Both the position numbers and the translations under genes were made by a program. The notes under the pieces were generated by a model. That model saw only the letters and a list, made by a program, of their open reading frames with translations. It was not told where the DNA came from and did not search any database. DNA of 64,000 bases from Chloroflexales bacterium ZM16-3. GTDB lineage: Bacteria; Chloroflexota; Chloroflexia; Chloroflexales; Chloroflexaceae. The stretch covers positions 1 to 64,000 of the forward strand of contig RYFE02000027.1 of NCBI GenBank assembly GCA_004138175.2, read 5' to 3'. Below, piece after piece: positions 14,292-64,000 of this stretch. Positions within the stretch are counted from its first letter, which is position 1; every line of letters starts with the position of its first letter.

Positions 14292-14344
14292 AGATGGTAT
14301 GCGTTCTGCTGAGCACTTGATTTCGTGGATGCGTGACCGTTCGG

Positions 14345-23179: not shown

Positions 23180-23187
23180 CGTAGTCG
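23163..23187. repeat. Right end of the insertion sequence: 17-bp inverted repeat plus 8-bp target copy
   Basis: GAATTACCCAGCGGTAT (23163-23179) is the exact inverse of the left end, followed by CGTAGTCG (23180-23187), the second target copy. The truncated drmMI frame stops inside this repeat. Confidence 0.92.
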
Positions 23188-31298: not shown

Positions 31299-31463
31299 AT
31301 TCCCGAAAGCTCACCTCCTTACACAGGCGCTCGCTACGCTCGGTCGAAGCTGCGGCCATTCTCTCGCTCATATCGAATATCATAGACTTTTTTGCGGATT
31401 TCCTGTAAAATTACGCATAGATTTAGTGGCTGTGCCGTAGCCATCAGGCTTGAGGACAAAACC

Positions 31464-36768: not shown

Positions 36769-36784
36769 GCCTGAGGAAAATGCC

Positions 36785-38881
36785 ATGCCCACAGCTAACC
36801 GCACATTTACTTGGCGCAAGACAGTCCCACAAGAGCTAGCCCAGTTCGCCATGCCTGATCTGTCAGAACATTTGCGCTGGCCACCCTATATCAGCCGGCT
36901 CGATCTGCTGGCCAACGAGGGGCGAGCCAGCGTTGTCCGCCAGTTCTACCAGCAGCTTCTCGGGCTCAAGCTTATCTATGAAGTCACCCCCTTCGATCCG
37001 CTGGACAGCGACGTCCAGCAGATCCGTCGGCCCAGCGAGATCCTGGCCAGCCGTGTCGGCACCTGTGTCGACCTCACGCTTCTCATGGCCGGAATGTGCC
37101 TAGCCGCCGACCTGTTGCCCCTAGTGGTGGTACTCGATGGGCACGCGCTCCTAGCTGTCTCGCTGACCAAAGGCCGCGCCGAGGCCCGCAACCTACCCCA
37201 TGTGCACGCGTTCGAGAACGGCCTGCTCCGCAACATCGATCATCTGCGCACGTGGGCAGATGACGAGGCGTACTTGCTGGTTGAGTGTACGGGCGTGGCC
37301 GCCAGCCAGGGTGGCCTCTCGCCACAAATGCCGGAGGGCGCAGGCCGCGACCGGCATGGCTACATGTCGTTCGACCGGGCGTGCGCGGCTGGTCTTGAAC
37401 AAATCGCGCAGCGCGCAGTCGCTAAGAATGTACAGGCCGGGACTAGCCAGCGGACGTTTCTTTTCGCTGCACACGTCCACGAGTTACAGCAGCGCGGATT
37501 CAAGCCGCTGAGCGATGCTGATCCGCCAGAAGTGATCGACCAGAGTGGGCACAATAATTTTGGCCAGGTCGGTACTATCGAACAGTTTATCGCTGGTGAC
37601 TATGTAGATGGAGATACGCTTACATTCGCCGGGCTCAGCGGAGCAGAGATAGCTGAGGCATTGCGGCGCATGAATGAGCGCCACCAGATATGGAATGCTC
37701 AGGTTGCCACCCTCTGCGCGATGCAGCTTGGTCTCTCGGTTGAAGCCATCTTTTACACTCAGTCGGCAACATGGAACCTGCCCCAGACGGTTGACATGGA
37801 TGCAGAGTCACCCCTCGAACTCTTTCGCCTCATTGTGCAAAAGCGCTACAACGACCGACCAAGTGATAGGGACTCACTGCTTGTCTTTGTCTGCGCTCTG
37901 GCATGCTCCAAGCTGATTAGTACCGATGACCAGCGACGACTCCATGACTGGGTTGATACTACCATTGAGCGTCTCGCAGAGACGCCTGCCGCGAGGGTTC
38001 GCCACACACAGCAGACCTACAGGCAGGCTGATGACATTGCGGCACAGGCCGAGCGCTACGCGCACGAGCCATTCTCGCTGCTGATTGACGTCGCGCCGAG
38101 CAGGGACGACCGTTATACGCTGCAAGTCCGCATCTTTCACCCCGCCGATATCGAGGCCAACCCACTTGACAGCACTACAGCCGACTTTACCGCTGACGAG
38201 CTACGCCAGGAGCTCAACGTGATACGGCGCAAGCTGCCGAGCTGGATCCGCTCCAGCGAGGGCGGCCTGCTCTTTGAGTTTCTGCTGCCCTTTGACCTCT
38301 TGGCTGAGCTTGAGGCTGGAGCATGGAAGCTCACTGACTGGCTATTCGAAGTCAAGCAGCGCTCGCCCGCAGATCTACCACTCGGGCAACTCCACCCGAT
38401 CATCGCACGCTGCTCCGATCGCACATCCGACGAGGAGCGCCAGTGGACGCGGCGCTGGCGTCAGTTCGAGCGGTGGCTGAGTGACCGGCAGCCAGAGATC
38501 GCTCCCCTACTGACTTGCCTGAACGATGACCACGCTTGCTATGTGTGTTATGAGAAGTGGCAAACAGAGAACCGCCTAGTCGGTGTGGTGATCGATGCCT
38601 TGCCCGACCCCGCGATACAGTGGGATGGGATCTTTGAAAAGATCCTCGAATCAGGACTGCCGGTTGCCCTCTGGCCAGCCCCGCGCCCAGAGGGCGCGGC
38701 CCTTCCCTCCTATAGTGAAGCTATTCTCCAAGATCAATCCGCCCGACTAGGCAACCTGCCGAGGGAGATCTGGGAACGACGTAAGAACCCCGCTATGGCA
38801 CATGAGGTCGCGGGACTGGTGCTGTTCTGGGATAATTACGACCGCCAGCCGCGACAGGTGCCATTTCAGGCACCGCAGTAG
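36785..38881 (+). CDS. VMAP-type protein: transglutaminase-like protease domain plus VMAP-C domain
   Basis: A protein of 698 residues. The N-terminal part has the transglutaminase-like cysteine protease pattern: GTCVDLTLLMAG (Cys about 94), then VVLDGHALLAV (His about 118). A variable middle contains repeats of EALRRMN-type helices. The C-terminal ~260 residues (RYTLQVRIF ... PSWIRSSEGGLLFEFLLP ... VALWP) match the VMAP-C domain of vWA-MoxR-associated proteins. In those ternary systems the VMAP protein is the effector or adaptor controlled by the MoxR ATPase and the vWA protein. The start is the ATG at 36785, after AGGAAA. Confidence 0.78.
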   Translation: MPTANRTFTWRKTVPQELAQFAMPDLSEHLRWPPYISRLDLLANEGRASVVRQFYQQLLGLKLIYEVTPFDPLDSDVQQIRRPSEILASRVGTCVDLTLLMAGMCLAADLLPLVVVLDGHALLAVSLTKGRAEARNLPHVHAFENGLLRNIDHLRTWADDEAYLLVECTGVAASQGGLSPQMPEGAGRDRHGYMSFDRACAAGLEQIAQRAVAKNVQAGTSQRTFLFAAHVHELQQRGFKPLSDADPPEVIDQSGHNNFGQVGTIEQFIAGDYVDGDTLTFAGLSGAEIAEALRRMNERHQIWNAQVATLCAMQLGLSVEAIFYTQSATWNLPQTVDMDAESPLELFRLIVQKRYNDRPSDRDSLLVFVCALACSKLISTDDQRRLHDWVDTTIERLAETPAARVRHTQQTYRQADDIAAQAERYAHEPFSLLIDVAPSRDDRYTLQVRIFHPADIEANPLDSTTADFTADELRQELNVIRRKLPSWIRSSEGGLLFEFLLPFDLLAELEAGAWKLTDWLFEVKQRSPADLPLGQLHPIIARCSDRTSDEERQWTRRWRQFERWLSDRQPEIAPLLTCLNDDHACYVCYEKWQTENRLVGVVIDALPDPAIQWDGIFEKILESGLPVALWPAPRPEGAALPSYSEAILQDQSARLGNLPREIWERRKNPAMAHEVAGLVLFWDNYDRQPRQVPFQAPQ

Positions 38882-38890
38882 GAGTTATGT

Positions 38891-39955
38891 ATGCGTGAAT
38901 GGCGTTTCTACAAAGGCACGGCGCGCAATGAGCCACTGCCCGCGCCCGAGGCAGGCCCGCCAATTCCGCCGGGCAGTCCCCTATACGGACTACCGGACGC
39001 GCCGCCCTGGCGCCGCTTCGATCTGCACAACCGCGACCGTCGGCGCGGCAAGGTGTTTCGTCCCGACGATGAGTTGATCGCGGTCGTCAATATGGCGATC
39101 TACCTGCGCCGGCCCTTGCTGATCACCGGTCGCCCCGGCACAGGCAAGTCGACTCTAGCATGGTCTATCGCCGAGGAGCTGGAACTGCCCTTGCTCCAGT
39201 GGCCAATTACGACGCGCACCACCCTCCAAGACGGGTTGTATACCTACGATGTGATCCGCCGACTCCAGGACGTGCAAATCTATGAGCGGCTGGCAGCCAG
39301 CGGTCCACACACGCCAACCGACGAGGAGCAGCCCCATAGCCAGTTTGATCCATCTCGTGAGATCGGCGAGTACCTAACCCTTGGGCCACTTGGGATGGCC
39401 ATGCTGCCCCCAGCCGAGGGGGCGCCGCCACTGCCGCGTGTCCTGCTAATCGACGAAATCGACAAGAGCGACATCGATCTACCAAACGACCTGCTTCATA
39501 TCTTCGAGGAGGGTGCGTTCGAGATTCGTGAGATCAGCCGCCATAAGAAGCTGGTACAGGCAGATACGGTCATGATTAGCACCCCTGACGGTGCCCAGGT
39601 GGCCGTGCAGGGCGATGGTAAGATCCGCTGCGCGGTCTTTCCGATTATCGTCATGACAAGCAATAAAGAGCGTGACTTCCCGCCCGCATTCCTGCGGCGC
39701 TGCCTGCGCTACGAGATGAAGGACCCCAGCCCTGAGGAGCTGGCGGAGATCGTGATCGCCCATCTGGGGACGGCAGTAGCGGTAGAACAGGTGGCCCGTA
39801 TCAACCAGTTTGCTGCGGAGCAGGTGAAAAACAACCTGGCAACCGACCAACTGCTCAACCTGCTGTACCTGCTTCGCCGTGAGGAGACGCTTGACCAGAA
39901 GCTCGTCGCGCAAATGACGGCGACACTGCTGAAAAACCTTGAGGCAGGCGCATGA
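38891..39955 (+). CDS. MoxR-type AAA+ ATPase of the VMAP system
   Basis: A protein of 354 residues with a single AAA+ module: Walker A GRPGTGKS (about 79), Walker B VLLIDEIDKSD (about 184) with the MoxR-typical insert before and after, sensor 1 IVMTSNKERDFPPAFLRR and a C-terminal lid. MoxR ATPases act as chaperones that remodel vWA partner proteins, usually by inserting metal or altering assembly. AGGAG precedes the ATG, and its stop overlaps the start of the vWA-NACHT-FGE gene as ATGA, so the two are made together. Confidence 0.92.
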   Translation: MREWRFYKGTARNEPLPAPEAGPPIPPGSPLYGLPDAPPWRRFDLHNRDRRRGKVFRPDDELIAVVNMAIYLRRPLLITGRPGTGKSTLAWSIAEELELPLLQWPITTRTTLQDGLYTYDVIRRLQDVQIYERLAASGPHTPTDEEQPHSQFDPSREIGEYLTLGPLGMAMLPPAEGAPPLPRVLLIDEIDKSDIDLPNDLLHIFEEGAFEIREISRHKKLVQADTVMISTPDGAQVAVQGDGKIRCAVFPIIVMTSNKERDFPPAFLRRCLRYEMKDPSPEELAEIVIAHLGTAVAVEQVARINQFAAEQVKNNLATDQLLNLLYLLRREETLDQKLVAQMTATLLKNLEAGA

Positions 39956-42900
39956 GCATTGCCGCTCTTGTGCGCGCCCTGGAGCAGATGAAAAGTGACC
40001 TGAGCGATGAGCAAATCGCTGAGGCGCTCTGGATGCTCCAGTACTTGCCCAACCCGACCGCGACGTCCGATACAGCAACTCCTCTCGCACCACAGGATGA
40101 AGGCGGTGGTGTAGAGTCTACTCAGGCGCAATTGTCATCCAAGATCAGAGATCGCTCCCCATCACAAAGCGACGCACAATTCCAGGAGACTGGGGACTCT
40201 GCTGGTAACCAGCGGCCAGACCAGAGTGTCCCTGAGCGGCGAGACGCCCCAGATGCCGACACGACCGATGATGCGAGGGCCGAGCTAAAGCAGCACGGGG
40301 GCCCATCGGTAGGTGCGTCGGGGGCGACGAGCGTCAGCATCTACGTGCCTGGTGAAGTGGCACTCCGTGACAGCCGTGCGTATGTGAGGTCGCTCCGCGC
40401 CCTCGACCGGCACGAGCGCTCGCGCCATCGTCAGTCATTAGACGAGCATGAGACCATCAGGCGGCTCCTCGAAGAGCGCGTTTTCTTGCCAGTCCAGCGT
40501 CCCGAGCGTGAGCGTTGGCTCGCGCTGCACCTAGTGCTCGACCATAGCCGATCAATGGGCATCTGGCACAAGCTGCGCGCCGAGCTACGCGCGCTCTTTG
40601 TGCGCCTGGGCGTCTTCAAGAATGTTCGCATCTGGGCGCTTGATGCGGAGAATAGCGCGCCGAAGTTGCGGCCCCTATCGCAGCAAGGGCACGCGGGCGT
40701 AAGTAACCTGCGCCCCTCCGCCCTAGTTGACCCAACCGGGCGCACTCTGGTGCTGGTGATTAGCGACGCCGTCTCGCCCGCCTGGCACGCAGGGGCTATG
40801 GCCGAAGCATTTGCGCAGTGGGGCAGGGTTGGGCCGACTGCCTTGCTCCAGGTGCTCCCGCAGCACCTCTGGCCGCGCAGCAGCCTGGGCAAAGGCTGGC
40901 AGGTGACCTTATTCGGTGCCGCCGGTGCGCCGAGCACCCGCCTCCGGATGCGGACACGTGGGCGCTCGGTGCGCGGGCGGCGCTTACCACTCGGTGTCCG
41001 CGTGCCGATCTTCGCCCTCACCCCCGACTCGTTCCACGACTGGTCTCGGATGGTGGCAGGCGTGCCAGGCGCGTCTGGAGTTGGCTATCATCTGGCGCTG
41101 CCTGTCACGAAAGGAGGCGACGCTGTAGCGCAGCCAGATCGGCTGATGACGCAGGCTGATGACGCAGAGGTAATCAAAGACTTTCTCCGAGCAACCTCGC
41201 CCACGGCCATCGATCTCGCCAAGCTACTCGCAGTGGCTCCCATCCTCAGCCTGCCGATTATTCGCACGATCCAGAGCCAGCTGATGCCTGCCTCTGGCCA
41301 GTCCCATCTGGCCGAGATCTTCCTGGGCGGGATTCTGCAGCCCCTGATATCCGACGACGATCCCGAGGAGACGATCTACACCTTTGTGCCCGGTGCCCGC
41401 GAGCTGCTCCTGAGTCATGCGGACCACCACGATACACGGTGCGCGTTCAAGGCGGTCTCAAGCTTCATTGAGGAGCAGGTCCGAAGCAGCTCGCGATTCC
41501 GCGCCTTCCTCGATGTGCCCGCAGGCGCGGACGACAGCCTCGCCGGCACAGTTCAAGCTGCCTTCGCCCATGCGACGGCCGCAGTGCTGCGCGACCTGGG
41601 CTACCACGATCTAGCCCTCGCCATGGTGGAGGCTCAGCGCCGCACGCAGCGCCCGTGGTTTGCGCGTGGCCACTCCCTCATAATTGGCGTCAGCGGATCG
41701 CTTCAGATGAAGCTGCCTAATGATCACCTTACCATAATCGAAGCCCAGACCGTCGCCGCTGTTCTGACAGATCCTGCCAATCCGCGCTACTTTACCGGTG
41801 CGCAGACCGGCAATATTTCTGTCAGCGATGTGTCCGGACGCGACCAGGTTGACCAGCAGATCAACCAACCTGCAGGAGGAGAGGCGCACGTCGGCGTGAT
41901 GGTTGGCTCTATCGGTGGCTACGTGCAGACTGGTGGGCTTGCGATTGGTGCGGTACACATCACCGTTGCGACGACCGGCCCAACCCTGAGCGATGAGGAG
42001 CGCCAGCTGCTCGCCCGCTACCTGCCGGCCATCCAGCAGAAGTATTGCCACCTGATGCTGCGCAACCGCGTCGCCCCCGAGCGCACCGGCAACGATGAGC
42101 GCGTCGTCCCTGAGCTCTACCTCGAAGAGGTCTACACCACCCTCACCACCGACGGCCCGGCGCGGATTGTGGTCGATGCCGAGCTTACGACGGCTGGACT
42201 GCGGAAGCGCCTCGCTGCGCTTGCGGAACATCCTGCGACCCCCGACCAGGTTGAGCCGCAGGATGTGCGCACCCTGGTCTATCGCCTGCTGACCCGCCGC
42301 ACAGCGGCGAAGGGCCGTGGTGCCCCGGCGCGCGATGACCTCGACGGCGCGGCGGAGGCGGCCTGGTCGCGTGACCCGCTGCCCGACGACACCCCGGCCA
42401 GCGCCCGCTTCCAGGTGCGCGAGACCCGGCCCGAGCTGGCGGTGGAGGCGCTGGCCCCGCAGGCGCTGGCCCCGCAGGCGCGGATCGTGCTCCTCGGCGG
42501 CCCCGGCAGCGGCAAGTCCACCGTGCTGCGCTATGTGGCCCTGCTCCTGGCCCAGTCCCTCGCACACGACACGCCCCCGCGCCTGCCCGGCTGGGGCGCG
42601 GCCCGCATCCCCTTCTTCATCCCCCTGGGCACGCTGAATGCGCAGCTTGATCAGACCGACGCCGCCGATGCTCTGATCGCCGCGCTGATGAGCGAGCTGG
42701 GCGGCACCGGCGACCTGCTGCCCACGGCGCAGGTGCGACATCTGCTCTTCGGCATGCTCCCGCGCACCATCCTGCTGCTCGACGGGCTCGATGAGCTCTC
42801 GGCGGAGGCGCGCCCCGCCCAGCCGACCGACCCGCGCAGCCGGGTGATCGCGGCGATCCGCCAGATCGCCCGCGACTACCCGGACACCGTGATCGTCGTC

Positions 42901-44940
42901 ACCTCACGCGAGCGCTCCTACCGCGCGCCGCGCGTCTTCCCCGCCGACGAGGGCTGGCAGACGCGGGTGGTGCAGCCCTTCGCCCGTGGCCAGGTGTGGG
43001 GCTTCCTCCAGCGCTGGTACGCGGCCATGGCCCGCGTCGGCGAGACGGGGGTGAGCGACGCGGGGGCGGCGCGGGCCGCGGCCGATCTCGGCGATCAGCT
43101 CGACGCCCAGCCGGCGTTGCGCCAGGCAATTGCCGCGACCGACCATGCCGACGGGCCGCAGCCGCCAGTCTCGCCCTTGCTGCTGACGATGCTAGCCATC
43201 CTGCACTACAGCCTCGGCGGCGAGCGCCTGCTAACCGAGCGCGCGCGGATCTACGAGCAGCTGGTGGTGCTGCTGCTGCACCGCTGGGAGCCGCGCCACA
43301 GCGACCCCTTTGTGAAGGGGCGCGACCTGGTGAGCCGGCTGAAAGACCCCCACGGCACGCGCGATGACGAGCTGCCGGATCTGAAGGGGGTCGACGATCT
43401 GCGCAGCATGCTGCATGAGGTGGCCTTCACGACCCACCGCGACGCGCCGGACGGCGAGAGCCGGGGCGTGATCGACGGCGACCGGCTCTTTGGCACCCTC
43501 AAGCGCTTCTTCTGGCACACCCACCGCTGTGAGGAAGCCCAGGCGACGGCGAAGGCCCAGCTCTTCCTGGCCGCGCTGAAGGATGAGGCCGGGCTGCTGG
43601 TGCCGCGCGACGAGCAGACCTACCAGTTTCCCCACCTCACCTTTCAGGAGTACCTGGCGGCCTGCCACCTGGCCGAGCACGAGGAGGGTGAGCAGGAGGC
43701 CTACGCCTGCTGGCAGGGGAAGGACGGCGACCGCTGGCGCGAGGTGATTCTGCTGATGATGGGGTGTTTACGTCGCCAGCGCAATGGCGTTCGGGTTGGT
43801 CGGCCCTGGCTCACCGACTGGCTGCTCGACACAAGCCGAGCGAAGACCCCAGCCCAGGCCCAGCGCGACGCCCTGCTGGCCGCCGACTGCTACAGCGATT
43901 TGGGCGGGCGGGCGGCACTCACCCGCTACAGCGAGGGGATTGAGGCGGCGCTGCGTACCGCGCTCGCCGCGATCCTCGTTCCCGTCGTGGTACCTGCGGG
44001 CCTCGCCGCCGCTGACCGCGTGCGCGCCGGGGTCATCTTGGGGGAGCTTGGCGACCCGCGCCCCGGCGTCTGTGATCTGCCGCCGCCGATGGTGGCGATC
44101 CAGGGTGGTAGCTTTGTAATCGGGAGCAGCGCGACTGAGGTAGATCATGCAAATAGGGTATACCGAGCGATAGGCGGATCGGATTGGGCAACCCAAGAGA
44201 TCAATGATCAACCCGTGGTGGTTTCATCGTTCGAACTGGCCCGCTACCCGGTGACGAACGCGCAGTTTCAGCAATTTATCGCCACTGGGGGCTACAACCC
44301 GGACGCATCCTGGTGGGATGTGGCCGGACGGGCGTGGCTGGCCCGCGAGGATCAGGCGACCACAGGACTCCAGCCATGGCAGCAACGCACGACAAAACGA
44401 CAACCCAGTTCTTGGGATGACCCGCGATTCGGGATCGCCCGCCCGAACCACCCGGTGGTTGGCGTCAACTGGTACGAGGCGACGGCATTCTGTACATGGC
44501 TAACGGCTCACCTGAATGATGGCTACACCTACCGTCTGCCGAGTGAGGCGGAATGGGAATATGCAGCGCGGGGCAGCGAGCGCCGGATCTATCCCTGGGG
44601 CGATACCGAGCCAGATGACGATCGCGCCAACTTCGATGGGCAGTACAATGGAACCAGTGCCGTCGGCTGCTTTCCGGCTGGGGCGACGCCAGGAACCGGG
44701 CTGTGCGACATGGCCGGGAATATCTGGGAGTGGACGCGCAGCGAATACCGAAATTACCCCTATGACCCGACCGATGGGCGCGAAGACGGGGCGGAGCCAG
44801 CACAAAAACAATTTACACTTCTCGGTGGCGCATGGTATAATCAACCGATCAACCTACGCGCGGCTAACCGTGCATACGAAACGGCTGAATACCATATTCG
44901 GGTTGTTGGTTTTCGATTTCTTCGGTACATTCGATTGTAA
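39952..44940 (+). CDS. vWA-like - NACHT NTPase - FGE-like (sulfatase-modifying) fusion protein
   Basis: A protein of 1662 residues. After a charged linker, a SAV_2336-type vWA-like domain (about 185-370) carries the metal motif DHSRS. A helical part leads to a glycine-rich beta stretch (about 610-665, NISVSDVSGRDQ). A NACHT-type STAND NTPase follows with Walker A LLGGPGSGKST (about 845) and Walker B ILLLDGLDELS (about 940), plus its helical arm (QFPHLTFQEYLAACHL). The C-terminal ~285 residues are an FGE/sulfatase-modifying domain: PVTNAQF, RLPSEAEWEYAARG, GNIWEWT, RVVGFRF. In conflict proteins this fold often serves as a ligand-binding sensor. As partner of MoxR it is the vWA arm of the VMAP ternary system, here fused to an NLR-like switch. 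Confidence 0.88.
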   Translation: MSIAALVRALEQMKSDLSDEQIAEALWMLQYLPNPTATSDTATPLAPQDEGGGVESTQAQLSSKIRDRSPSQSDAQFQETGDSAGNQRPDQSVPERRDAPDADTTDDARAELKQHGGPSVGASGATSVSIYVPGEVALRDSRAYVRSLRALDRHERSRHRQSLDEHETIRRLLEERVFLPVQRPERERWLALHLVLDHSRSMGIWHKLRAELRALFVRLGVFKNVRIWALDAENSAPKLRPLSQQGHAGVSNLRPSALVDPTGRTLVLVISDAVSPAWHAGAMAEAFAQWGRVGPTALLQVLPQHLWPRSSLGKGWQVTLFGAAGAPSTRLRMRTRGRSVRGRRLPLGVRVPIFALTPDSFHDWSRMVAGVPGASGVGYHLALPVTKGGDAVAQPDRLMTQADDAEVIKDFLRATSPTAIDLAKLLAVAPILSLPIIRTIQSQLMPASGQSHLAEIFLGGILQPLISDDDPEETIYTFVPGARELLLSHADHHDTRCAFKAVSSFIEEQVRSSSRFRAFLDVPAGADDSLAGTVQAAFAHATAAVLRDLGYHDLALAMVEAQRRTQRPWFARGHSLIIGVSGSLQMKLPNDHLTIIEAQTVAAVLTDPANPRYFTGAQTGNISVSDVSGRDQVDQQINQPAGGEAHVGVMVGSIGGYVQTGGLAIGAVHITVATTGPTLSDEERQLLARYLPAIQQKYCHLMLRNRVAPERTGNDERVVPELYLEEVYTTLTTDGPARIVVDAELTTAGLRKRLAALAEHPATPDQVEPQDVRTLVYRLLTRRTAAKGRGAPARDDLDGAAEAAWSRDPLPDDTPASARFQVRETRPELAVEALAPQALAPQARIVLLGGPGSGKSTVLRYVALLLAQSLAHDTPPRLPGWGAARIPFFIPLGTLNAQLDQTDAADALIAALMSELGGTGDLLPTAQVRHLLFGMLPRTILLLDGLDELSAEARPAQPTDPRSRVIAAIRQIARDYPDTVIVVTSRERSYRAPRVFPADEGWQTRVVQPFARGQVWGFLQRWYAAMARVGETGVSDAGAARAAADLGDQLDAQPALRQAIAATDHADGPQPPVSPLLLTMLAILHYSLGGERLLTERARIYEQLVVLLLHRWEPRHSDPFVKGRDLVSRLKDPHGTRDDELPDLKGVDDLRSMLHEVAFTTHRDAPDGESRGVIDGDRLFGTLKRFFWHTHRCEEAQATAKAQLFLAALKDEAGLLVPRDEQTYQFPHLTFQEYLAACHLAEHEEGEQEAYACWQGKDGDRWREVILLMMGCLRRQRNGVRVGRPWLTDWLLDTSRAKTPAQAQRDALLAADCYSDLGGRAALTRYSEGIEAALRTALAAILVPVVVPAGLAAADRVRAGVILGELGDPRPGVCDLPPPMVAIQGGSFVIGSSATEVDHANRVYRAIGGSDWATQEINDQPVVVSSFELARYPVTNAQFQQFIATGGYNPDASWWDVAGRAWLAREDQATTGLQPWQQRTTKRQPSSWDDPRFGIARPNHPVVGVNWYEATAFCTWLTAHLNDGYTYRLPSEAEWEYAARGSERRIYPWGDTEPDDDRANFDGQYNGTSAVGCFPAGATPGTGLCDMAGNIWEWTRSEYRNYPYDPTDGREDGAEPAQKQFTLLGGAWYNQPINLRAANRAYETAEYHIRVVGFRFLRYIRL

Positions 44941-51635: not shown

Positions 51636-51959
51636 ATGACCGCCACATCGAACGACCGCCCCATCCGCCCGCTCGTCCATACGCTGATCAAGGCGCTCAC
51701 GCTGGATGTCTGGCCCTCCCACGCCACGCTGATGGACTTCGGTATTCAGACTCCCGCCCACTACGCAGCTATCCAGAAGGCGGTGCTGGCCACCCCCGAC
51801 CTGGATGCGCTGCGGCGCGAGCTCAACGAGATTCTGGGCAGCGGGCCGAAGATCACCGCCTGGGTGCGCCAGCGGGTGCCTGACGCGCCGGTCTTCGTCA
51901 CCGCCTGGGACGATCTCCCTCTGGGCGACGAGGAGCCCGCCGACGGCGGCGCGGAGTGA
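51636..51959 (+). CDS. Hypothetical protein coupled to parB
   Basis: A protein of 107 residues, not recognised, mainly helical with an acidic end. It has GGAGG before the ATG, and its stop overlaps the GTG start of the ParB gene as GTGA, so it likely functions with or regulates production of ParB. Confidence 0.75.
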   Translation: MTATSNDRPIRPLVHTLIKALTLDVWPSHATLMDFGIQTPAHYAAIQKAVLATPDLDALRRELNEILGSGPKITAWVRQRVPDAPVFVTAWDDLPLGDEEPADGGAE

Positions 51960-52942
51960 GCGCCGAGCAGGCAGCGGCACCGCCTCCCAAGCGGCGGTCG
52001 CGCAAGCGGGCCGCTGCCGACGAGCAGGCCGTCACGCATATCCCGGTCGCCGACGTGGCGACCGGGCTAAACAATCGCACCGTGTTCAATCCGCAGAAGC
52101 TGGCTGACCTCGCGGCGAGCATGGCCGAGCACGGGCTGGCCCAGCCAATCACCGTGCGGCCTCGCGGGGCAGGCAGGTATCAGCTCGTCGCAGGTGAGCG
52201 CCGGTGGCGGGCCGCCAAGCTCCTCGGCTGGAAGACGATCCCGGCCCTCGTGCGCGACCTGACCGACCGGCAGGCCCGCTCGATCACCCTGATTGAGAAC
52301 AGTCACCGCGAGGATGTCGATCCCATCGACGAGGCGCTGGGCTACCGGGCCTATATGGACGAGTTTGGGGTGGGCGAGGCCGAGATGGCCACCGCCGTGA
52401 ACCTGCCCAGCGTGCGGATCTATAAGCGGCTGGAGCTGTTGAAGCTGCGCGCCGACGTGCAGGAGCAGGTGCGGAAGAACCCGACCCTGCTGACCCTGTT
52501 CGACCTGATGACGATCCTCGATCACAACCGCCAGGCGCTGGCCCTGCGCGTGCTGATCAGCAAGAGCCGCCCGCCCAGCCTCGCGGAGTTCCGCCGCGTG
52601 GTCAACGACTTCAAGGGAGATCAGGACAAAGAGGACGGCACCCAGGGAGCCCTGTTTACCGCCGATCAGATCGCCGATATGTGGGTGGAGAAGTTTCAGG
52701 TCGCCGACCAGGCGGGGGAGCGCGCCCGGCGCGCGCGCCTGCCCATCGACGCCCGCTTTCCCGCCCCGCGGGTCAAGGATCGCCGCCAGTGGCTCGCCAA
52801 TCAGATGAAGGATTGGGCCGATGATCTGGCGGCGGCAGGGTACGATGAGGCGGCGGCGGCCATCTACACGCTCACTGAGCAGTGCATCAGAGACAACCGC
52901 CTCGAAGCCGACGAGAGCCAGTGGACGGAATATTTCACCTGA
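51956..52942 (+). CDS. ParB-like partition/PRTRC protein
   Basis: A protein of 328 residues from a GTG. The ParB/Srx-like N-terminal domain has LVAGERRWRAAKLLG (about 78-92) and IENSHREDVDPIDEA, followed by a helix-turn-helix region (VGEAEMATAVNLPSVRIYKRL). The rest is charged and ends in a helical tail. ParB-type proteins bind parS sites and act as CTPases in plasmid or chromosome segregation. A ParB-like protein is also a constant member of PRTRC cassettes. No ParA is present nearby, in line with a PRTRC-type rather than a classical partition locus. Confidence 0.88.
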   Translation: MSAEQAAAPPPKRRSRKRAAADEQAVTHIPVADVATGLNNRTVFNPQKLADLAASMAEHGLAQPITVRPRGAGRYQLVAGERRWRAAKLLGWKTIPALVRDLTDRQARSITLIENSHREDVDPIDEALGYRAYMDEFGVGEAEMATAVNLPSVRIYKRLELLKLRADVQEQVRKNPTLLTLFDLMTILDHNRQALALRVLISKSRPPSLAEFRRVVNDFKGDQDKEDGTQGALFTADQIADMWVEKFQVADQAGERARRARLPIDARFPAPRVKDRRQWLANQMKDWADDLAAAGYDEAAAAIYTLTEQCIRDNRLEADESQWTEYFT

Positions 52943-57955: not shown

Positions 57956-58576
57956 ATGACTGACACCACCTTCCGCTCCATCGTGCCCGTCGCCGGCGAC
58001 ATCGTTGCCGGGTCGCTGACCGACATGGCCCGCCAGAACGGCGGGAAGATCACGCCGCCCGAGCTTATCGTGCTGTTCGACATCTCCTACTCGATGAACG
58101 ACCGGGACGCCACCCTCCTCGACGGGCTGACCGCCAGCCGCTATCAGGCCGGCTGCGAGCAGTTGGCGATCATCCAGCGCAAGCTGCCCGGCAAGGTCGC
58201 GGTGATCGCGTTCAGCCAGGTCGTGACCGTCTGCCCGAACGGGGTACCGCCGGAGCCCGAGAGCACGACCAACCTGCGCGCCGCGCTGGAGAAGGCCAAG
58301 GGCGCGGACTCGGGCACCGTGCGCTTCGTGGTGATCAGCGACGGGCTGCCCGACGACCCCGGCGCGGCGCTGGAGCTGGCCCAGGCCTTCACGGGCAAGA
58401 TTGACACCGTGCTGGTGGGCAACCTGTCCGAGTACTACCGCGCCGGGGCGGTCGAGTTCATGACGAAGCTGGCCGCGACCACCGGCGGCACGTTCATGCG
58501 CGACGCCTCGGGGATGCGCGCCCTGGCCGAGGGCGTGATGCTGCTGCTCGGCGCGGGGCCGATCCAGCCGGCCTAG
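57956..58576 (+). CDS. vWA-domain protein of the cassette
   Basis: A protein of 206 residues, a single vWA domain with the metal motif FDISYSM (about 41), the threonine in STTNLRAAL and the aspartate in VISDGLPDD. No signal peptide. It follows the J-domain gene by 21 bases with AAAGGG before the ATG. It differs from the TerY-like vWA at 3856-4611 in sequence and context. vWA proteins are scaffolds in many multi-gene systems; its target here is unknown. Confidence 0.87.
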   Translation: MTDTTFRSIVPVAGDIVAGSLTDMARQNGGKITPPELIVLFDISYSMNDRDATLLDGLTASRYQAGCEQLAIIQRKLPGKVAVIAFSQVVTVCPNGVPPEPESTTNLRAALEKAKGADSGTVRFVVISDGLPDDPGAALELAQAFTGKIDTVLVGNLSEYYRAGAVEFMTKLAATTGGTFMRDASGMRALAEGVMLLLGAGPIQPA

Positions 58577-58646: not shown

Positions 58647-59417
58647 ATGTCCACCCTCACCTTGACCATTGGCGGCACCGATGTGCGGTTCCGCTCCTCC
58701 ACCGCCCAGGGCGCGATTGACCGTTTCGCTGCCTGGATGCGCACCATCCGGCCGGAGTGCTGGCAGGTTGCCACCGACGTAGAAGCCGACGGGGCGCAGA
58801 TCAAGCTGCGCTACCGCCAGCAGGCCGCCGTCGGCGGGCCGGCCACCGACGCCTGGGTCGTCACCGTCTGGCAGGCCGAGGGCGGCATGGCCCACATCCC
58901 CGTCCACACCGACGCCGAGGATGCGCTGGCGAACTTCTGCCGCTGGCTGCCGCGCACCGGTGCCTGCTGGCAGGACCCGATCCCGGCGCAGACCCAGGTG
59001 ACGATCATCTTCCCCGACCCGGAGCGCGTCCCAAGCGAGCCTGGCGCCGACGACGTGACGAACGGCTGTCGCTGGCTCTACGCGCTGATCAAGGACCGCG
59101 AGCGGCTCGACCGTGAGCTGCGCCGCAGCCAGATGGCGCACACGACGGCGCTCTACCACCTCAACCGCAACGAGCTGCTCGACGCCCGCGAGGCGCTGGC
59201 CGCGCTCGACCTCCACGAGGGCCGCTTCGACTACGCCGTGCTGCCGGTCGCGATCCGCGCGGCCCTGGAGGCGGTCAGCGAGTCGGTGGTCCGCGATAGC
59301 GAGGGCGAGCTGCGCGAGAAGGTTCACGACCTCGCCGACGCCGTTGGCCTCGGCTGGAGCGAGGCCGCGTTGAAGGATATCACCCCGCCCACCATCCTCG
59401 GGCTGCCCATTGTCTAG
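58647..59417 (+). CDS. Hypothetical protein of the PRTRC-linked operon
   Basis: A protein of 256 residues, not recognised. The N-terminal ~130 residues are alternating beta strands and helices (LTLTIGGTDVRFRS, DAWVVTVWQAEGG). The C-terminal half is helical and charged (RWLYALIKDRERLDRELRRSQ, NELLDAREALAALDLHEGRF). It precedes the gene at 59437 by 19 bases, so they share a message with the PRTRC genes or a read-through from the vWA gene. Confidence 0.72.
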   Translation: MSTLTLTIGGTDVRFRSSTAQGAIDRFAAWMRTIRPECWQVATDVEADGAQIKLRYRQQAAVGGPATDAWVVTVWQAEGGMAHIPVHTDAEDALANFCRWLPRTGACWQDPIPAQTQVTIIFPDPERVPSEPGADDVTNGCRWLYALIKDRERLDRELRRSQMAHTTALYHLNRNELLDAREALAALDLHEGRFDYAVLPVAIRAALEAVSESVVRDSEGELREKVHDLADAVGLGWSEAALKDITPPTILGLPIV

Positions 59418-59436
59418 CCTACAGAAGGAGTCGTTG

Positions 59437-60192
59437 ATGCGACCGGTCACTGTGCAACTGTTCTACAAGAAGTCCATTCGGCTGGCCCCATACAACCAAG
59501 CTGAGGTCGGCGTGATCGTCACCCTGGAGGCCAACCCCGACGAGGCGGTGGATCCCGCCCAGCTCGCCGAGGCGATCAGCCCGGCATGGGCGCAGGTGCG
59601 GGAGTTCGTCCACGGCCAGGAGGATACGGCGATCCTGCGCTACCAGGATCTCAACCCGCACGAGCTACCCCAGGGGCGGCGCAGCGGGCGGGCGGCATTT
59701 ACGCCGGTGGCCCATGAGGTCGTCGACCGCCAGACCGATCAGGAGTCAGCGGATCGGATTGCCGGGGAGGCGGCGGCGCGGGTCGACCCCCAGCCCGCCC
59801 AGGCCGACTCGGGCTTCCCCGCCTGCGAGGATGCCGTGGCCCGCGAGGATGCCGCAGCCCAGCCGACCGGGCCGGAGCCGCCCAAGACGGCCGAGGAGGC
59901 GGCAGAGCGGTACTTCGTCCGCTACGGCGAGGCGCTCGGCGGCAGCGACCTGGCCGCCGTGCAGGCCTTCTTTGGCGAGGATGCGGCCCCGCTGGAGCTG
60001 CCGACCAGCATCGACGCGTGGCTGGCCCTGGCCACCCGCACCCGCGCCGCAATCAAGGCGCGCCAGGCCACCGCCGAACACCAGCAGCGGGTCGATGAGG
60101 CCAAGCAGACGCTGGTCGCCGCTGAGCAGAGGGCCGCGCCGCTTGGCCGGGCTCCGGCCCGCCGTGCCCCGCGCCTCACGCCGCAGAAGTAG
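59437..60192 (+). CDS. Hypothetical protein sharing a C-terminal domain with the PRTRC F-like protein
   Basis: A protein of 251 residues. The N-terminal ~75 residues form an alpha/beta domain (VTVQLFYKKSIRL, EVGVIVTLEANPDE). An acidic linker precedes a ~60-residue helical domain at about 155-212 (AAERYFVRYGEALGGSDLAA, VQAFFGED), which recurs at the C-terminus of the protein encoded at 60729-62042. The end is basic. The ATG at 59437 follows AAGGAG. It might be the PRTRC E position by order, but I do not see that family's sequence pattern. Confidence 0.75.
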   Translation: MRPVTVQLFYKKSIRLAPYNQAEVGVIVTLEANPDEAVDPAQLAEAISPAWAQVREFVHGQEDTAILRYQDLNPHELPQGRRSGRAAFTPVAHEVVDRQTDQESADRIAGEAAARVDPQPAQADSGFPACEDAVAREDAAAQPTGPEPPKTAEEAAERYFVRYGEALGGSDLAAVQAFFGEDAAPLELPTSIDAWLALATRTRAAIKARQATAEHQQRVDEAKQTLVAAEQRAAPLGRAPARRAPRLTPQK

Positions 60193-60255: not shown

Positions 60256-60792
60256 ATGGACGAAGACCAGATCGAAGAAGTCGCAGCCGAGACCGACGAG
60301 GCCGAGGCTGCACCCACCGAACCTGCCGTTGCCGACGCCGCGCCGGCGCTGATTATGGAGAACGCCACCACCTGGATCGTCCGCATCGAGGGCGTGGACT
60401 TCTCCATCGCCGCCGACACGCCCGAGCCACAGATCCGCGAGACGCTGTCCACGCAGTACCCCGGTGCCCGCGACGCCACGATCGCCTACGACAAGGTGCA
60501 GATTGACGGCCAACTGCACAAGCGCCTGACCTTCACCAAGCGGGGCGGCACCAAGGGCTGCCCCGTCGAGGATCTGCGCGTGCTGCTGATCACCGTGCCG
60601 CCCGTCACGCTGGCCACCATCCGCCGCGCCGGGAGCGTCTCGCCCGAGACCCGCGGCGGGCTCACGTTCGACCAGTTCCTGACCGTCCTGATCGACTCGG
60701 ACGGCGATATCGTCACACAGGAGGAGTTATGGCCACAGCTCGCCGCCCTGCCCCACTCGCTCGTCGTCGTGACCCTCGACGGGTCGCGGTAG
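60256..60792 (+). CDS. PRTRC protein C-like, ubiquitin-like protein with extensions
   Basis: A protein of 178 residues. The central part (about 35-100) follows the PRTRC C pattern: a beta start (TTWIVRIEGVDFSI), the helix/loop ETLSTQYPGARDATI, and a beta hairpin ending LTFTKRGGTKG. PRTRC C has been predicted to adopt a ubiquitin-like fold. Here it has an acidic N-terminal extension of ~35 residues and a C-terminal domain of ~75 residues not found in the usual ~70-residue form. There is no terminal diglycine; GGTKG is internal, so either conjugation is not by a processed tail or the JAMM enzyme trims it. CAGGAG before the ATG. Confidence 0.75.
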   Translation: MDEDQIEEVAAETDEAEAAPTEPAVADAAPALIMENATTWIVRIEGVDFSIAADTPEPQIRETLSTQYPGARDATIAYDKVQIDGQLHKRLTFTKRGGTKGCPVEDLRVLLITVPPVTLATIRRAGSVSPETRGGLTFDQFLTVLIDSDGDIVTQEELWPQLAALPHSLVVVTLDGSR

Positions 60793-62042
60793 CGTACCTG
60801 AGCCAGGTCTTCAAGCGCACCGTGCTGGTCGGCGGTGAGGAGGATCACATCAGCATCTCCACCGCCCGGCGCGCCGCCGAGCTCATCCAGTTCTACTGGA
60901 AGGACCTCTACGACGAGCACATCGCCGACCTGGCGGTCACGCCGGCCACCATGCTCGCCACCGTCGGCCTGTTCCTGGGCATGGCTAATCACGAACTCAT
61001 CGACCTCCAGGACTACTGGGAGATGCCGACCGGGGGAGCCGACCCGGTCGGCTTCTTTCTCACCCGGCTGGAGCGGCCGGCGCCAACCCAGGCGCTGGCC
61101 CAGATATTCGAGTCGCGATCGAATGTCTGGGAGCCGATGCCGATGAGCTACGGCCTCGACCTGCAGTGGCTGGCCGAGGTCGAGCCGAACGACCAGTTCG
61201 CCCTGCTCGCCCTGATCTGGCGGCTCTGGTCGAAGAACCCGGTGATGATGAACTATTTTGGCCACCTGGCCGACGACGCCTACGAACGCCTCGTAGACAG
61301 CGCCGATCTCCAGGAGCGTATCAAGGCGGTGCAGCCGCTGCCGTACCTCGACATCCCGCACGCCCGCGACGCCTTCTGGCTGGCCCTGGATATCGAGCTC
61401 GGGACGAGCGACCTGCACCCGGTCACGCTCGCCGAGGTGGTGAGCTATGCGATCGGCCAGACCGACAATCAGTGGGCCGCCCTGAGCTGTAATGATTTGA
61501 ACGAAGGCTACTTCGGCAATTACGGGATCGCATGGAACGACCCCGATCACGTGCGCCAGGTCAAAGCGCAGCAGGAAGAGGCCGAGGCGCTGGTGCAGGG
61601 CTTCTGGCAGGTGGCCGACGCGATCACCGAGCACCCGCCGCTCATCGGCGGGCTGGCCGAGGCGCTGCACGAGGTCACGGCGCTGGTGCAGGCGCTGCAC
61701 CCGAACCCCTACCGCGCCGCAGCGAAGGGCGATAGCGCCGATGCGGAGCGGCGCTACTTCGCCCGCTTCGCTGCGGCGCTGGGCGGCGGAGAGGATCTCG
61801 CCGCCGTGCAGGCCTTCTTCGGCGGGGAGCTCCTGGCGGTGGAGTCCCTGCCGACCACCGTGGAGGACTGGCTGCTGCTCACCGTGACGACGCACCTGGA
61901 GATCGCGGCCAGGACGGCGGTGGGCGCGCCCGGCTCATGCGATCAGTATCTTGCAGACCTGGAGGCGAACGATGGACATGCCAGAGCCGAAGCCCAAACC
62001 GAAGGTGCGAATCACGAAGCCGCCGCGACCAGGGCGGCGTGA
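60729..62042 (+). CDS. Probable PRTRC protein F-position protein with shared C-terminal domain
   Basis: A protein of 437 residues, overlapping the end of the ubiquitin-like gene by 64 bases but with its own AGGAGG six bases before the ATG. Mostly helical (IQFYWKDLYDEHIADLAV, NDQFALLALIWRLWSKNPV), with an Asn/Tyr/Phe-rich part (LNEGYFGNYGIAWND). Its C-terminal ~60 residues (about 339-394: AERRYFARFAAALGG, EDLAAVQAFFGGE) repeat the domain in the protein at 59437. The F label rests on its place between C and B in the cassette, not on recognised sequence. Confidence 0.65.
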   Translation: MATARRPAPLARRRDPRRVAVAYLSQVFKRTVLVGGEEDHISISTARRAAELIQFYWKDLYDEHIADLAVTPATMLATVGLFLGMANHELIDLQDYWEMPTGGADPVGFFLTRLERPAPTQALAQIFESRSNVWEPMPMSYGLDLQWLAEVEPNDQFALLALIWRLWSKNPVMMNYFGHLADDAYERLVDSADLQERIKAVQPLPYLDIPHARDAFWLALDIELGTSDLHPVTLAEVVSYAIGQTDNQWAALSCNDLNEGYFGNYGIAWNDPDHVRQVKAQQEEAEALVQGFWQVADAITEHPPLIGGLAEALHEVTALVQALHPNPYRAAAKGDSADAERRYFARFAAALGGGEDLAAVQAFFGGELLAVESLPTTVEDWLLLTVTTHLEIAARTAVGAPGSCDQYLADLEANDGHARAEAQTEGANHEAAATRAA

Positions 62043-62721
62043 GAGCCTGATCAGCGATGTGCCGCCGAAGCTCACGCTCCGGTTCTACGACGGGGCGATT
62101 GTCGCCGCGCGCAAGGTCGGCCGGCGCTGGTCGGAGTACTTCGTGGACGCCGGCGCGGTGCGCCAGGTGCTGGCCGGCGCACCGACATCCAGCGGCCTGC
62201 TCGGGCCGAACACGCTGGCCACCGGGCTGCGCGAGGGCGTGGCCTTCACCGTCGCGCTCATCGCGCCGCGCCGCGTCTTGGTGGCGATCGGCACGAAGAC
62301 CACACACGAGTTCGCCTTCGTCACCCCGCCGATCGTGTGGGCCGGCTGGGGTGAGCAGTACCGCATCTTCGCGCTGCATACCAGCGACCTGGCCAAGGGC
62401 TGGCCGACGAGCGACCGCATCACCCTGTACCACGCGCCGTTTGCGAACACCTACGCCAGCGGCGCGATCTGCTGGGGCAGCGGCCGACGGCCAGGGGTCG
62501 CCAGCCCGGCCACGATGGAGGCCGGCTTCACGATCTACGCCGAGGACTCCTTCTTTATCGCGTCCGCCATGTCCGCGCCGAGTGCGAAGTACGGCGGCGA
62601 CCTTGACAAGCTCTACGCCGCGCTACGCGGGCTCAAGGTCTACCCGAGTGCTGATCTCACGCCACAAGGAAAGCAGCTCAGCGATGTGCTGAGCGCGGAG
62701 GTATTCAGTGATTCTCTCTGA
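61972..62721 (+). CDS. PRTRC protein B-like, E2-like conjugating protein
   Basis: A protein of 249 residues. After a Pro/Lys-rich tail, the core has the PRTRC B pattern: PPIVWAGWGEQYRIFAL, then YHAPFANTYASGAICWGSG, with a single candidate catalytic Cys at about 167, then FTIYAEDSFF. PRTRC B is predicted to be an E2-like ubiquitin conjugase. The ATG at 61972 follows GGAGG; the frame is open from a TTG at 61951 without a better site. It overlaps both neighbours, as expected for a coupled cassette. Confidence 0.82.
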   Translation: MDMPEPKPKPKVRITKPPRPGRRESLISDVPPKLTLRFYDGAIVAARKVGRRWSEYFVDAGAVRQVLAGAPTSSGLLGPNTLATGLREGVAFTVALIAPRRVLVAIGTKTTHEFAFVTPPIVWAGWGEQYRIFALHTSDLAKGWPTSDRITLYHAPFANTYASGAICWGSGRRPGVASPATMEAGFTIYAEDSFFIASAMSAPSAKYGGDLDKLYAALRGLKVYPSADLTPQGKQLSDVLSAEVFSDSL

Positions 62722-63571
62722 TCTCGCCCGACAGATGACCCATCACCACGTCGCAAGCGTGGCCGATCCGGTGCCCGAGCGGCGCGGCATCAGCTACATC
62801 TGGGCCGGCAACGGCGTGTTCAAGTACGGGCGGAACGCGGACACCGAGGTGATTGTGCGCTGGGAGGACGGCTCCACCCCCGGCCTGCCCGACCTGGATG
62901 CCGCGATCGCCTGGGACGAGTGGCCCGGCCGGCTGCCCGGCGCACTGCTCGCCCAGGTGTTGGCCGAGGCACGCTTGGCCGAGGCCCCGAAGGGCGGCGA
63001 GGGCAGCGACGCGGCGGCGCTGGTGCCAGTCGAGGCGCAGTGGCTGGTCGTGCTCGACGACAACCATCAGCCGCGGCTGATGCGGCCCACGCAGACCGCC
63101 AGCCCGGCCCAGGTGCGCTACGAGCTGGAGGGCATGCCGTTCCTGCTCGACCTCCACAGCCACAACACGATGGGAGCCTTCTTCAGCCAGGTTGACGACC
63201 GGGATGACACCTGGCTCTCGGCCAGCGTGGTGATTGGCGACATCTTCGGCACGCCGACGATGTTGTGTCGGCTAAACGTGTACGGCGCGCGGCAGACGGT
63301 GCCGGCGCTGCTGCTGTTCGACGACCTCGGCCCGTTCAGCGACCTCTCCATGGCCCCCGAGACGGACGCCGACCCGCCCCTACCTCCCGGCGACCCGCGC
63401 GACCCGTGGACGAGCGTGCGCATGATGGTCGGGTGGCTGATCGAGGCGCTGGTCGATGCTGGCCTGTACCCGCTGACGAACCCGGCCGACCGGGCGCAGC
63501 TCGACGCGCAGCTCAATGCGGCGCTGGCGGCTGAGACGAAGGGGATTGACCATGCGCCACCTGCAGCCTGA
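62708..63571 (+). CDS. PRTRC protein A-like JAMM peptidase
   Basis: A protein of 287 residues from a GTG. A short N-terminal domain precedes the JAB/JAMM domain with a complete metal motif at about 150: HSH, seven residues, then SQVDD (HxHx7SxxD). This is the active pattern of deubiquitinase-like JAMM peptidases. In PRTRC it is expected to process or remove the ubiquitin-like protein. It overlaps the B gene by 14 bases and the ThiF gene by 20 bases. Confidence 0.87.
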   Translation: MILSDLARQMTHHHVASVADPVPERRGISYIWAGNGVFKYGRNADTEVIVRWEDGSTPGLPDLDAAIAWDEWPGRLPGALLAQVLAEARLAEAPKGGEGSDAAALVPVEAQWLVVLDDNHQPRLMRPTQTASPAQVRYELEGMPFLLDLHSHNTMGAFFSQVDDRDDTWLSASVVIGDIFGTPTMLCRLNVYGARQTVPALLLFDDLGPFSDLSMAPETDADPPLPPGDPRDPWTSVRMMVGWLIEALVDAGLYPLTNPADRAQLDAQLNAALAAETKGIDHAPPAA

Positions 63572-64000
63572 GATCGTGACCCCGTTCTGCATCCCCGAGC
63601 GGGACTTCCAGATCGTGGTGGTCGGATGTGGCGGGAACGGCAGCCAGATCGCGGGCGGACTGGGGCGGCTGTGCTACCACCTGCGCAGCGTCGCGCGGGC
63701 GCCGGCGGTCAACGTCGTGCTCATCGACGGCGACCGGTTCGCGCAGAAGAATGTCGGCCGCCAGCTGGCCAGGGTGCGGGACATCGGCGTGAACAAGGCG
63801 CAGGCGCTGGCGGCGCGGGTCAGCGCCGACTACGGCCTGCGGTTCGAGGCCATCCCCGAGATGCTGACCGACAAGATGCTCGGCGACCTGATCTCCGGCC
63901 AGGAAGACCCCGGGCGCGGGGCGAACCGCACAAACCTGATCGTGGTCGGCTGCGTGGACCGACCCGAGGCGCGGGCGATGATCCACAGCCAGCTCGCGAT
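63552..64000 (+). CDS. PRTRC ThiF, E1-like adenylating protein (partial, runs off the window)
   Basis: The first ~149 residues are visible. The Rossmann start VVVGCGGNGSQIAGGL (about 23-38) binds nucleotide. Next are VVLIDGDRFAQKNVGRQL and DIGVNKAQAL, which carry the Asp, Arg and Lys used in adenylation. IVVGCVDRPEARAMI follows. This is the E1 of the cassette and should activate the ubiquitin-like protein encoded at 60256. Whether an active-site Cys exists downstream cannot be seen. Confidence 0.92.
   Translation, partial: MRHLQPEIVTPFCIPERDFQIVVVGCGGNGSQIAGGLGRLCYHLRSVARAPAVNVVLIDGDRFAQKNVGRQLARVRDIGVNKAQALAARVSADYGLRFEAIPEMLTDKMLGDLISGQEDPGRGANRTNLIVVGCVDRPEARAMIHSQLA

What the first reader, a model, noticed from the sequence alone, without database searches (positions are those of the whole stretch)
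60256..64000. PRTRC ubiquitin-like cassette with an extended ubiquitin-like protein
The E1 (ThiF), E2-like, JAMM and ubiquitin-like genes overlap in one run, so a complete conjugation and removal set appears present. The ubiquitin-like protein carries an extra ~75-residue C-terminal domain and lacks a terminal diglycine, unlike a simple modifier. It may be cleaved by the JAMM enzyme after the GGTKG, or may act without conjugation. Given the growing set of bacterial ubiquitin-like defence systems, a role in conflict is worth testing.
Basis: partly seen in the sequence, partly recalled or inferred. Interest (0 to 1): 0.75.

Follow-up and report, generated by a model that had tools for sequence, protein, structure and literature searches.

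The report
Plasmid-type bacterial pro-ubiquitin system
A bacterial gene set related to one found on many plasmids encodes a ubiquitin-like tag with a 77-residue tail; comparison of 130 relatives suggests that the tail is a removable cap, cut off by the set's own metalloprotease to expose the glycine used for attachment, although this has not been tested at the bench.

Summary
It is a divergent PRTRC cassette, the "6d" operon of Iyer et al. 2006. E1 nucleotide-site motifs and cysteine, E2 cysteine and all JAMM metal/catalytic residues are present; residues 38-101 of the ubiquitin-like protein are predicted as a beta-grasp with G101 at the Gly76 position.

The new result concerns the tail. In 130 related loci the ubiquitin-like ORF either stops at G-x-K-G (0-7 further residues) or runs on 47-98 residues, never between. 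All 55 tailed proteins lie in loci with a JAMM gene; all 23 JAMM-less loci have tail-less proteins. In one Bacillales plasmid the ubiquitin-like domain is fused to the JAMM through GTTKG. Tails fall to random identity while the ubiquitin-like domain stays conserved.

Best explanation: a pro-ubiquitin whose variable propeptide is cut after GGTKG by the operon's JAMM, then activated by ThiF and passed to the E2-like protein. Targets are unknown. Precedents: archaeal pro-ubiquitin/Rpn11 and BilA/BilC. A defence role is not shown; PRTRC sets also ride on plasmids and a phage.

The parts
60256..60792 (+). ubiquitin-like protein with propeptide-like tail (PRTRC C position), 178 aa
   Evidence: ORF; homologues in six other genomes; own HMM of PRTRC C proteins E 8.6e-14; no Pfam or NCBIfam hit
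60367..60558 (+). beta-grasp (ubiquitin-like) domain, residues 38-101, ending in GGTKG
   Evidence: AlphaFold2 strand-strand-helix-strand-strand, pLDDT about 90; aligns with ubiquitin 1-76 and SUMO1 20-97, Z 5-6, rmsd 2.3-3
60544..60558 (+). GGTKG, predicted JAMM cleavage site after Gly101
   Evidence: 75 of 130 related ORFs stop at or within 7 residues of this point; K100 invariant and G98, G101 nearly so in 52 aligned proteins
60559..60789 (+). 77-residue C-terminal tail (predicted propeptide)
   Evidence: pLDDT 36-66; dN/dS about 0.83 against 0.36 for the domain, window versus G034; last 64 nt of the ORF overlap the next gene
60729..62042 (+). F-type protein, 437 aa, function unknown
   Evidence: same position and overlap in relatives; homologous among the six Chloroflexia-type loci; not demonstrably related to proteobacterial PRTRC F (hhalign probability 0.2)
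61972..62721 (+). E2-like protein (PRTRC B / Prok-E2_D), catalytic Cys167 at nt 62470-62472
   Evidence: TIGR03737 1.6e-13, PF14460 1.8e-12; Cys invariant in 146 sequences; weak UBC-fold matches, Ubc9 Z 3.7, UFC1 about 2
62708..63571 (+). JAMM/JAB metalloprotease (PRTRC A), GTG start
   Evidence: TIGR03735 2.8e-14, PF14464 1.1e-5; Glu109 and H150-S-H152-(x7)-S160-x2-D163 all present
63552..64000 (+). ThiF/E1-like adenylyltransferase (first part; ends at contig position 64469, or starts at 63516 if the upstream ATG is used)
   Evidence: TIGR03736 4.2e-36, PF00899 1.2e-10; GxGGxG, D, N/RQ, K, D and invariant Cys present
59434..60192 (+). upstream gene of the run (PRTRC E position), conserved in two relatives, no family match
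58647..59417 (+). upstream gene of the run, conserved in G034, no reliable family match
57956..58576 (+). VWA-like protein at the head of the run, also upstream of the cassette in G039
   Evidence: weak VWA match (TIGR03436 0.0012); homologue in L110
51956..52942 (+). ParB-family protein upstream (the 'PR' of PRTRC), about 7 kb away
   Evidence: PF02195 1.7e-27

Best explanation
A PRTRC-type (Iyer 6d) ubiquitin-like conjugation system whose modifier is made as a precursor. Proposed steps: (1) the 178-residue protein is translated with its C-terminal glycine buried behind a 77-residue propeptide [anatomy shown]; (2) the operon's JAMM metalloprotease cuts after Gly101 (GGTKG|CPVED) [inferred]; (3) ThiF adenylates the freed glycine and may carry it on its invariant cysteine, then passes it to Cys167 of the E2-like protein [residues shown, reaction inferred]; (4) the modifier is attached to an unknown target and the same JAMM can remove it [inferred; JAMM is also kept in 52 loci with a tail-less modifier]. 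The tail works as a fast-changing cap rather than as a conserved domain.
For: 130 loci holding both the ubiquitin-like gene and ThiF: tail and JAMM 55; no tail and JAMM 52; no tail and no JAMM 23; tail and no JAMM 0; no tails of 8-46 residues. JAMM-less loci are mostly shorter between the ubiquitin-like gene and ThiF (about 1.9 versus 2.6 kb). After removing near copies: 37/34/19/0; 11 tail changes and 9 JAMM changes on the ThiF tree; a rough simulation of independent evolution on that tree gives zero tail/no-JAMM rows in 0.4% (3 of 708) or 1.8% (1 of 57) of runs. Alkalihalophilus plasmid: ubiquitin-like domain fused through GTTKG to the JAMM; Metabacillus: it stops at GGAKG and the JAMM gene starts in an overlapping ATGA. 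Tails form 22 unrelated clusters among 37 and fall to random identity (0.18) where the ubiquitin-like domain is still 0.57 identical. Residue 100/101 falls on ubiquitin Gly76 / SUMO Gly97. Catalytic residues intact. Precedents: Caldiarchaeum pro-ubiquitin cut by its Rpn11/JAMM and refractory to E1 when uncut (PMC5654768); BilA opened by BilC (review PMC11354881).
Against: No experiment. The matched-pairs test on the tree has too few supported pairs to be significant, and the simulation rests on one quick, midpoint-rooted tree. Two same-order relatives read GTKA, not GTKG, at the junction, although bacterial cGAS conjugation also tolerates a terminal alanine (PMC10097602). The histidine that Iyer et al. 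called absolutely conserved in this E2 family is missing in the window and its nearest relative. Family scores are below NCBI's curated cut-offs. A JAMM elsewhere in the genome was not searched for in JAMM-less loci.
Confidence: 0.7

Rival explanations
1. The tail stays attached and the protein acts as a non-covalent ubiquitin-like scaffold; GGTKG is only structural and the JAMM cuts other proteins.
For: Within the window's order the tail keeps short conserved motifs (LTFxE, CxxL..LP, PLGW), more than a pure cap would need.
Against: 75 of 130 relatives stop at or within 7 residues of that point; tailed and tail-less proteins share the same G-x-K-G end; no tail occurs without JAMM; ubiquitin-like/JAMM fusion at the same junction.
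Confidence: 0.13
2. The cassette is a sulfur-carrier pathway: ThiF adenylates the C-terminal glycine, which becomes a thiocarboxylate used in a small-molecule or RNA modification, and the JAMM only matures the carrier.
For: ThiF-type E1 and ThiS/MoaD-like beta-grasp; a MoaD-type molybdopterin synthase chain is among the fold matches; JAMM with a carrier protein is known from siderophore operons (PMC1779556).
Against: An E2-like protein with an invariant cysteine accompanies the sets (146 sequences), as does an invariant E1 cysteine; no rhodanese, cysteine synthase or biosynthetic gene was identified beside the window's set among the genes scanned.
Confidence: 0.1
3. A host anti-phage system like Bil or CBASS Cap2/Cap3 (this concerns purpose, and could be true together with the precursor mechanism).
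For: Same enzyme classes; lies on a stretch rich in defence genes, including DISARM, AbiL-type and restriction genes.
Against: Single beta-grasp rather than the two of BilA, short E1 without a second adenylation domain (PMC11354881); PRTRC-type ThiF is found in 360 plasmid records, a Burkholderia phage and IMG/VR contigs, often next to ParB; no PADLOC hit for the E2-like protein or the JAMM.
Confidence: 0.2

Closest known systems
PRTRC system (NCBIfam TIGR03735/03736/03737 and related) = operon type 6d of Iyer, Burroughs and Aravind 2006 (PMC1779556)
   Same: Ubiquitin-like, F-position, E2-like, JAMM and ThiF genes in the same order; ParB nearby; G-x-K-G end of the modifier
   Different: Scores below NCBI cut-offs; modifier carries a 77-residue tail; the E2-like protein lacks the downstream histidine; the F protein is not demonstrably homologous
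Caldiarchaeum subterraneum pro-ubiquitin / Rpn11-like JAMM (PMC5654768)
   Same: Modifier encoded with a C-terminal propeptide next to a JAMM; cutting exposes the glycine that E1 needs
   Different: 9-residue propeptide, diglycine, archaeal E1/E2/RING cascade; here 47-98 hypervariable residues, single glycine, ThiF-type E1
BilABCD (reviewed in PMC11354881)
   Same: Bacterial E1, E2, JAMM and ubiquitin-like set; the JAMM opens the precursor's C terminus
   Different: BilA has two ubiquitin-like domains; BilD has inactive and active adenylation domains; BilB has a CEHH active site
Precursor ubiquitins of eukaryotes (SUMO, NEDD8, ubiquitin-ribosomal protein fusions)
   Same: Inactive precursor with C-terminal extension
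   Different: Processed by dedicated proteases that are not encoded in the same operon

Membership tests
PRTRC system / Iyer type 6d operon | ThiF-type E1 of the PRTRC family | tested here: met
   TIGR03736 E 4.2e-36, 124.5 bits, but below the curated 144.75 cut-off; invariant E1 residues
PRTRC system / Iyer type 6d operon | E2-like protein B with invariant cysteine | tested here: met
   TIGR03737 1.6e-13 (50.6 bits, cut-off 131.45), PF14460 over its cut-off; Cys in all 146 sequences
PRTRC system / Iyer type 6d operon | E2-like protein has a conserved histidine downstream of the cysteine | tested here: not met
   Histidine in 121 of 146, Ala at that column in the window; absent from L109, L110, L158 too, so not strictly defining
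PRTRC system / Iyer type 6d operon | JAB/JAMM protein A with HxH(x7)SxxD | tested here: met
   TIGR03735 2.8e-14 (53.1 bits, cut-off 101.8), PF14464; all residues
PRTRC system / Iyer type 6d operon | Small beta-grasp protein C with conserved C-terminal glycine | tested here: met
   Fold and own HMM 8.6e-14; glycine conserved but not terminal; no NCBIfam hit
PRTRC system / Iyer type 6d operon | Largely helical protein F | tested here: inconclusive
   Right position, no detectable homology to proteobacterial F; not folded
PRTRC system / Iyer type 6d operon | ParB-related gene in the neighbourhood | tested here: met
   ParB_N 1.7e-27 at 51956-52942
BilABCD | Modifier with two ubiquitin-like domains | tested here: not met
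   One confident beta-grasp; tail without confident fold
BilABCD | E1 with inactive plus active adenylation domains | tested here: not met
   306-residue ThiF with one adenylation domain
Pro-ubiquitin processed by a JAMM | Precursor extension C-terminal to the reactive glycine, JAMM in the same locus | tested here: met
   55 of 55 tailed members have the JAMM
Pro-ubiquitin processed by a JAMM | JAMM cuts after the glycine | not testable with these tools
   needs a biochemical assay

The most novel reading that the evidence does not exclude
The tails are not mere caps: each lineage carries its own swapped-in, fast-changing peptide that is released by the JAMM, or that marks uncut precursor, through its apolar, uncharged C-terminal tip, so the propeptide is a second, exchangeable functional part under conflict-like selection.
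Probability: 0.12. Interest if true: 0.75.

Novelty: new variant of a known kind. Interest (0 to 1): 0.5.

Why it matters
PRTRC sets are on hundreds of large plasmids, including Pseudomonas, Xanthomonas and Vibrio ones, yet the papers found that name them show no biochemistry in their titles or abstracts. The survey gives a sharp, cheap prediction: the JAMM is a maturase as well as a possible deconjugase, the reactive end is G-x-K-G, and short-form members are natural pre-processed controls. It would give conjugation studies the right mature C terminus to work with, and suggest that JAMM-matured pro-ubiquitin is widespread in bacterial mobile elements.

Tried and rejected
Tail as a conserved second ubiquitin-like or other domain: low confidence in the model and no cross-lineage homology. 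Tail as an ORF artefact of the overlap with F: rejected, since the tail is kept in six other genomes and only its last 64 nt overlap F. Solved structures by sequence: none for the ubiquitin-like or E2-like families, only ThiF for the E1. Foldseek alone gave no E below 0.001 for either model. Relatives of the window's own proteins in IMG/VR: none found; the proteobacterial ThiF profile found 47 loci. Chloroflexia homologues came through the genome search and were left out of the fold jobs, whose rule admits only the window and listed loci, so the tail model lacks its best relatives. A 16-sequence ThiF alignment was too diverse for the scan. Matched-pairs tree test: uninformative. tRNA attachment site: no tRNA gene in the window.
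Full report
CHECK OF THE OBSERVATION. The run is real. In order on the + strand: VWA-like 57956-58576, unknown 58647-59417, E-position gene 59434-60192, ubiquitin-like 60256-60792, F-position gene 60729-62042, E2-like 61972-62721, JAMM 62708-63571, ThiF 63552 (or 63516)-64469. The last five overlap successively. Family hits: PRTRC_ThiF 4.2e-36, PRTRC_B 1.6e-13, PRTRC_A 2.8e-14, with Pfam ThiF, Prok-E2_D and Prok-JAB; all three PRTRC scores lie below NCBI's cut-offs, so this is a divergent member. The ubiquitin-like protein has no Pfam or NCBIfam hit but matches an HMM of PRTRC C proteins built here, in which the window sequence was one of the seeds (8.6e-14). Six other genomes of the class keep the ubiquitin-like (with tail), F, E2-like, JAMM and ThiF genes.

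CATALYTIC PARTS. In 16 diverse ThiF proteins the glycine motif, the nucleotide-binding Asp, Asn and Gln, Lys, the second Asp and a cysteine (C228 in the window) are invariant. In 147 aligned JAMM cores H, H and D are invariant and Glu (93%) and Ser (99%) nearly so; the window has all five. The E2-like cysteine is invariant in 146 sequences (Cys167, nt 62470), but the downstream histidine described for this E2 family by Iyer et al. is Ala in the window and missing in its nearest relative. Its model (mean pLDDT 77) finds UBC folds among the few rows of the structural second look, weakly (Ubc9 Z 3.7, TSG101 2.8, UFC1 about 2), mixed with unrelated folds.

UBIQUITIN-LIKE DOMAIN. Residues 36-100 overlay ubiquitin 1-76 and SUMO1 20-97 with Z 5-6. 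Z of this size alone proves little, but many of the top rows are ubiquitin, SUMO and a molybdopterin-synthase subunit, and the end of the match puts residue 100/101 at the reactive glycine.

THE TAIL. I collected PRTRC loci from bacterial genomes (80), IMG/VR contigs (47), plasmids and relatives of the window's genome, located the ubiquitin-like domain, JAMM and ThiF with HMMs iterated on these sets, and measured residues after G-x-K-G. Of 130 loci with both the ubiquitin-like gene and ThiF: 55 tail+JAMM, 52 short+JAMM, 23 short without JAMM, none tail without JAMM. Tail lengths are 0-7 or 47-98. JAMM-less loci mostly have about 1.9 kb rather than about 2.6 kb from the ubiquitin-like gene to ThiF, so the gene is missing rather than overlooked. 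The end motif is GTKG in 105, GAKG in 7, GSKG in 5. In Alkalihalophilus pBpOF4-01 the domain is fused through GTTKG to the JAMM; in Metabacillus pB218 it stops at GGAKG with the JAMM starting in an overlapping ATGA. These two, and Paenibacillus (ends KKG, no JAMM seen in the stretch), are not among the 130.

RELATEDNESS CONTROL. After collapsing near copies (37/34/19/0), the ThiF tree needs 11 tail changes and 9 JAMM changes; the supported-branch pair test has too few pairs to decide. A rough simulation of independent evolution gives an empty tail/no-JAMM cell in 3 of 708 runs, or 1 of 57 with margins near the observed. I treat the association as good but not overwhelming; the exact coincidence of stop codons with G-x-K-G and the fusion are separate lines.

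EVOLUTION OF THE TAIL. The 37 non-redundant tails fall in 22 BLAST clusters. For loci with ThiF 0.5-0.6 identical, the ubiquitin-like domain is 0.57 identical and the tail 0.18, the value for shuffled tails. Window versus G034: dN/dS 0.36 in the domain, 0.83 in the tail. In one close pair (G046, G044) the tail is instead more conserved than the domain. Within the window's order the tail keeps weak motifs. Across lineages the last eight residues are more apolar and half as charged as random tail windows; why is unknown.

MECHANISM. The most economical reading is a pro-ubiquitin capped by a changeable propeptide that the operon's JAMM removes, then E1 activation and E2 transfer. Shown: anatomy, residues, association. 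Inferred: cleavage, activation, conjugation. Close precedents exist: Caldiarchaeum pro-ubiquitin is refractory to E1 until its Rpn11/JAMM removes nine residues (PMC5654768), and BilC opens BilA (PMC11354881). Iyer et al. (PMC1779556) described the operon type and a highly conserved terminal glycine, and proposed JAB processing for phage TAPI and fused ThiS/MoaD; the passages read there do not mention tails in type 6d.

FUNCTION. Unknown. The window's stretch carries an integrase and defence genes; PRTRC-type ThiF elsewhere is on 360 plasmid records, IMG/VR contigs and Burkholderia phage BgVeeders33, whose copy is complete and tailed. This favours a benefit to the mobile element, but no test here separates maintenance, counter-defence and defence.

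LIMITS. Loci were gathered with a mainly proteobacterial ThiF profile; 20 loci gave no ubiquitin-like call and are not counted; HMMs were trained on the sets they score; JAMM elsewhere in the genome was not excluded for JAMM-less loci; the literature library is open-access only.

Noticed in passing
window 9047-14366 (-) and 23169-26936 (-): DISARM-type genes: DrmB, DrmA (PADLOC 1e-82, 5e-280) and a large MmeI/Eco57I-type methylase.
   Followed up: no
window 31392-33540 (+): AbiL-type pair: AbiLi/AriA-like ATPase and AbiLii/RloB protein, beside a phage integrase at 33826-34860.
   Followed up: no
window 36683-44940 (+): VMAP-C protein, MoxR-like AAA and a NACHT-FGE-sulfatase protein in a row; looks like a conflict-type ternary system.
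   Followed up: no
window 14376-18692 (-): 1,439-residue WD40-repeat protein between DISARM genes and a type IV restriction-like protein at 18966-21146.
   Followed up: no
L162 (Burkholderia phage BgVeeders33) 2731-7217: A 33-kb sequenced phage carries a complete PRTRC E-C-F-B-A-ThiF run with a tailed ubiquitin-like protein and an extra 61-aa ORF after it.
   Followed up: partly
tails in L029-L161, e.g. L060, L055, L135: Unrelated tails share an apolar, uncharged tip; several Oxalobacteraceae tails end in ..VAA or ..AA, resembling C-terminal degrons; the L135 tail resembles a zinc ribbon.
   Followed up: partly
L111 and L114 (genomes G046, G044): Junction reads GTKA instead of GTKG, so the reactive residue would be alanine.
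   Followed up: no
L009/L112 and relatives G044, G046, just upstream of the ubiquitin-like gene: A conserved 151-155 aa protein, by eye Rad52-like, sits in front of the cassette.
   Followed up: no
L004 14356-17103 (-): TPR-repeat protein with many near-identical repeats downstream of the cassette, NB-ARC-like by eye.
   Followed up: no
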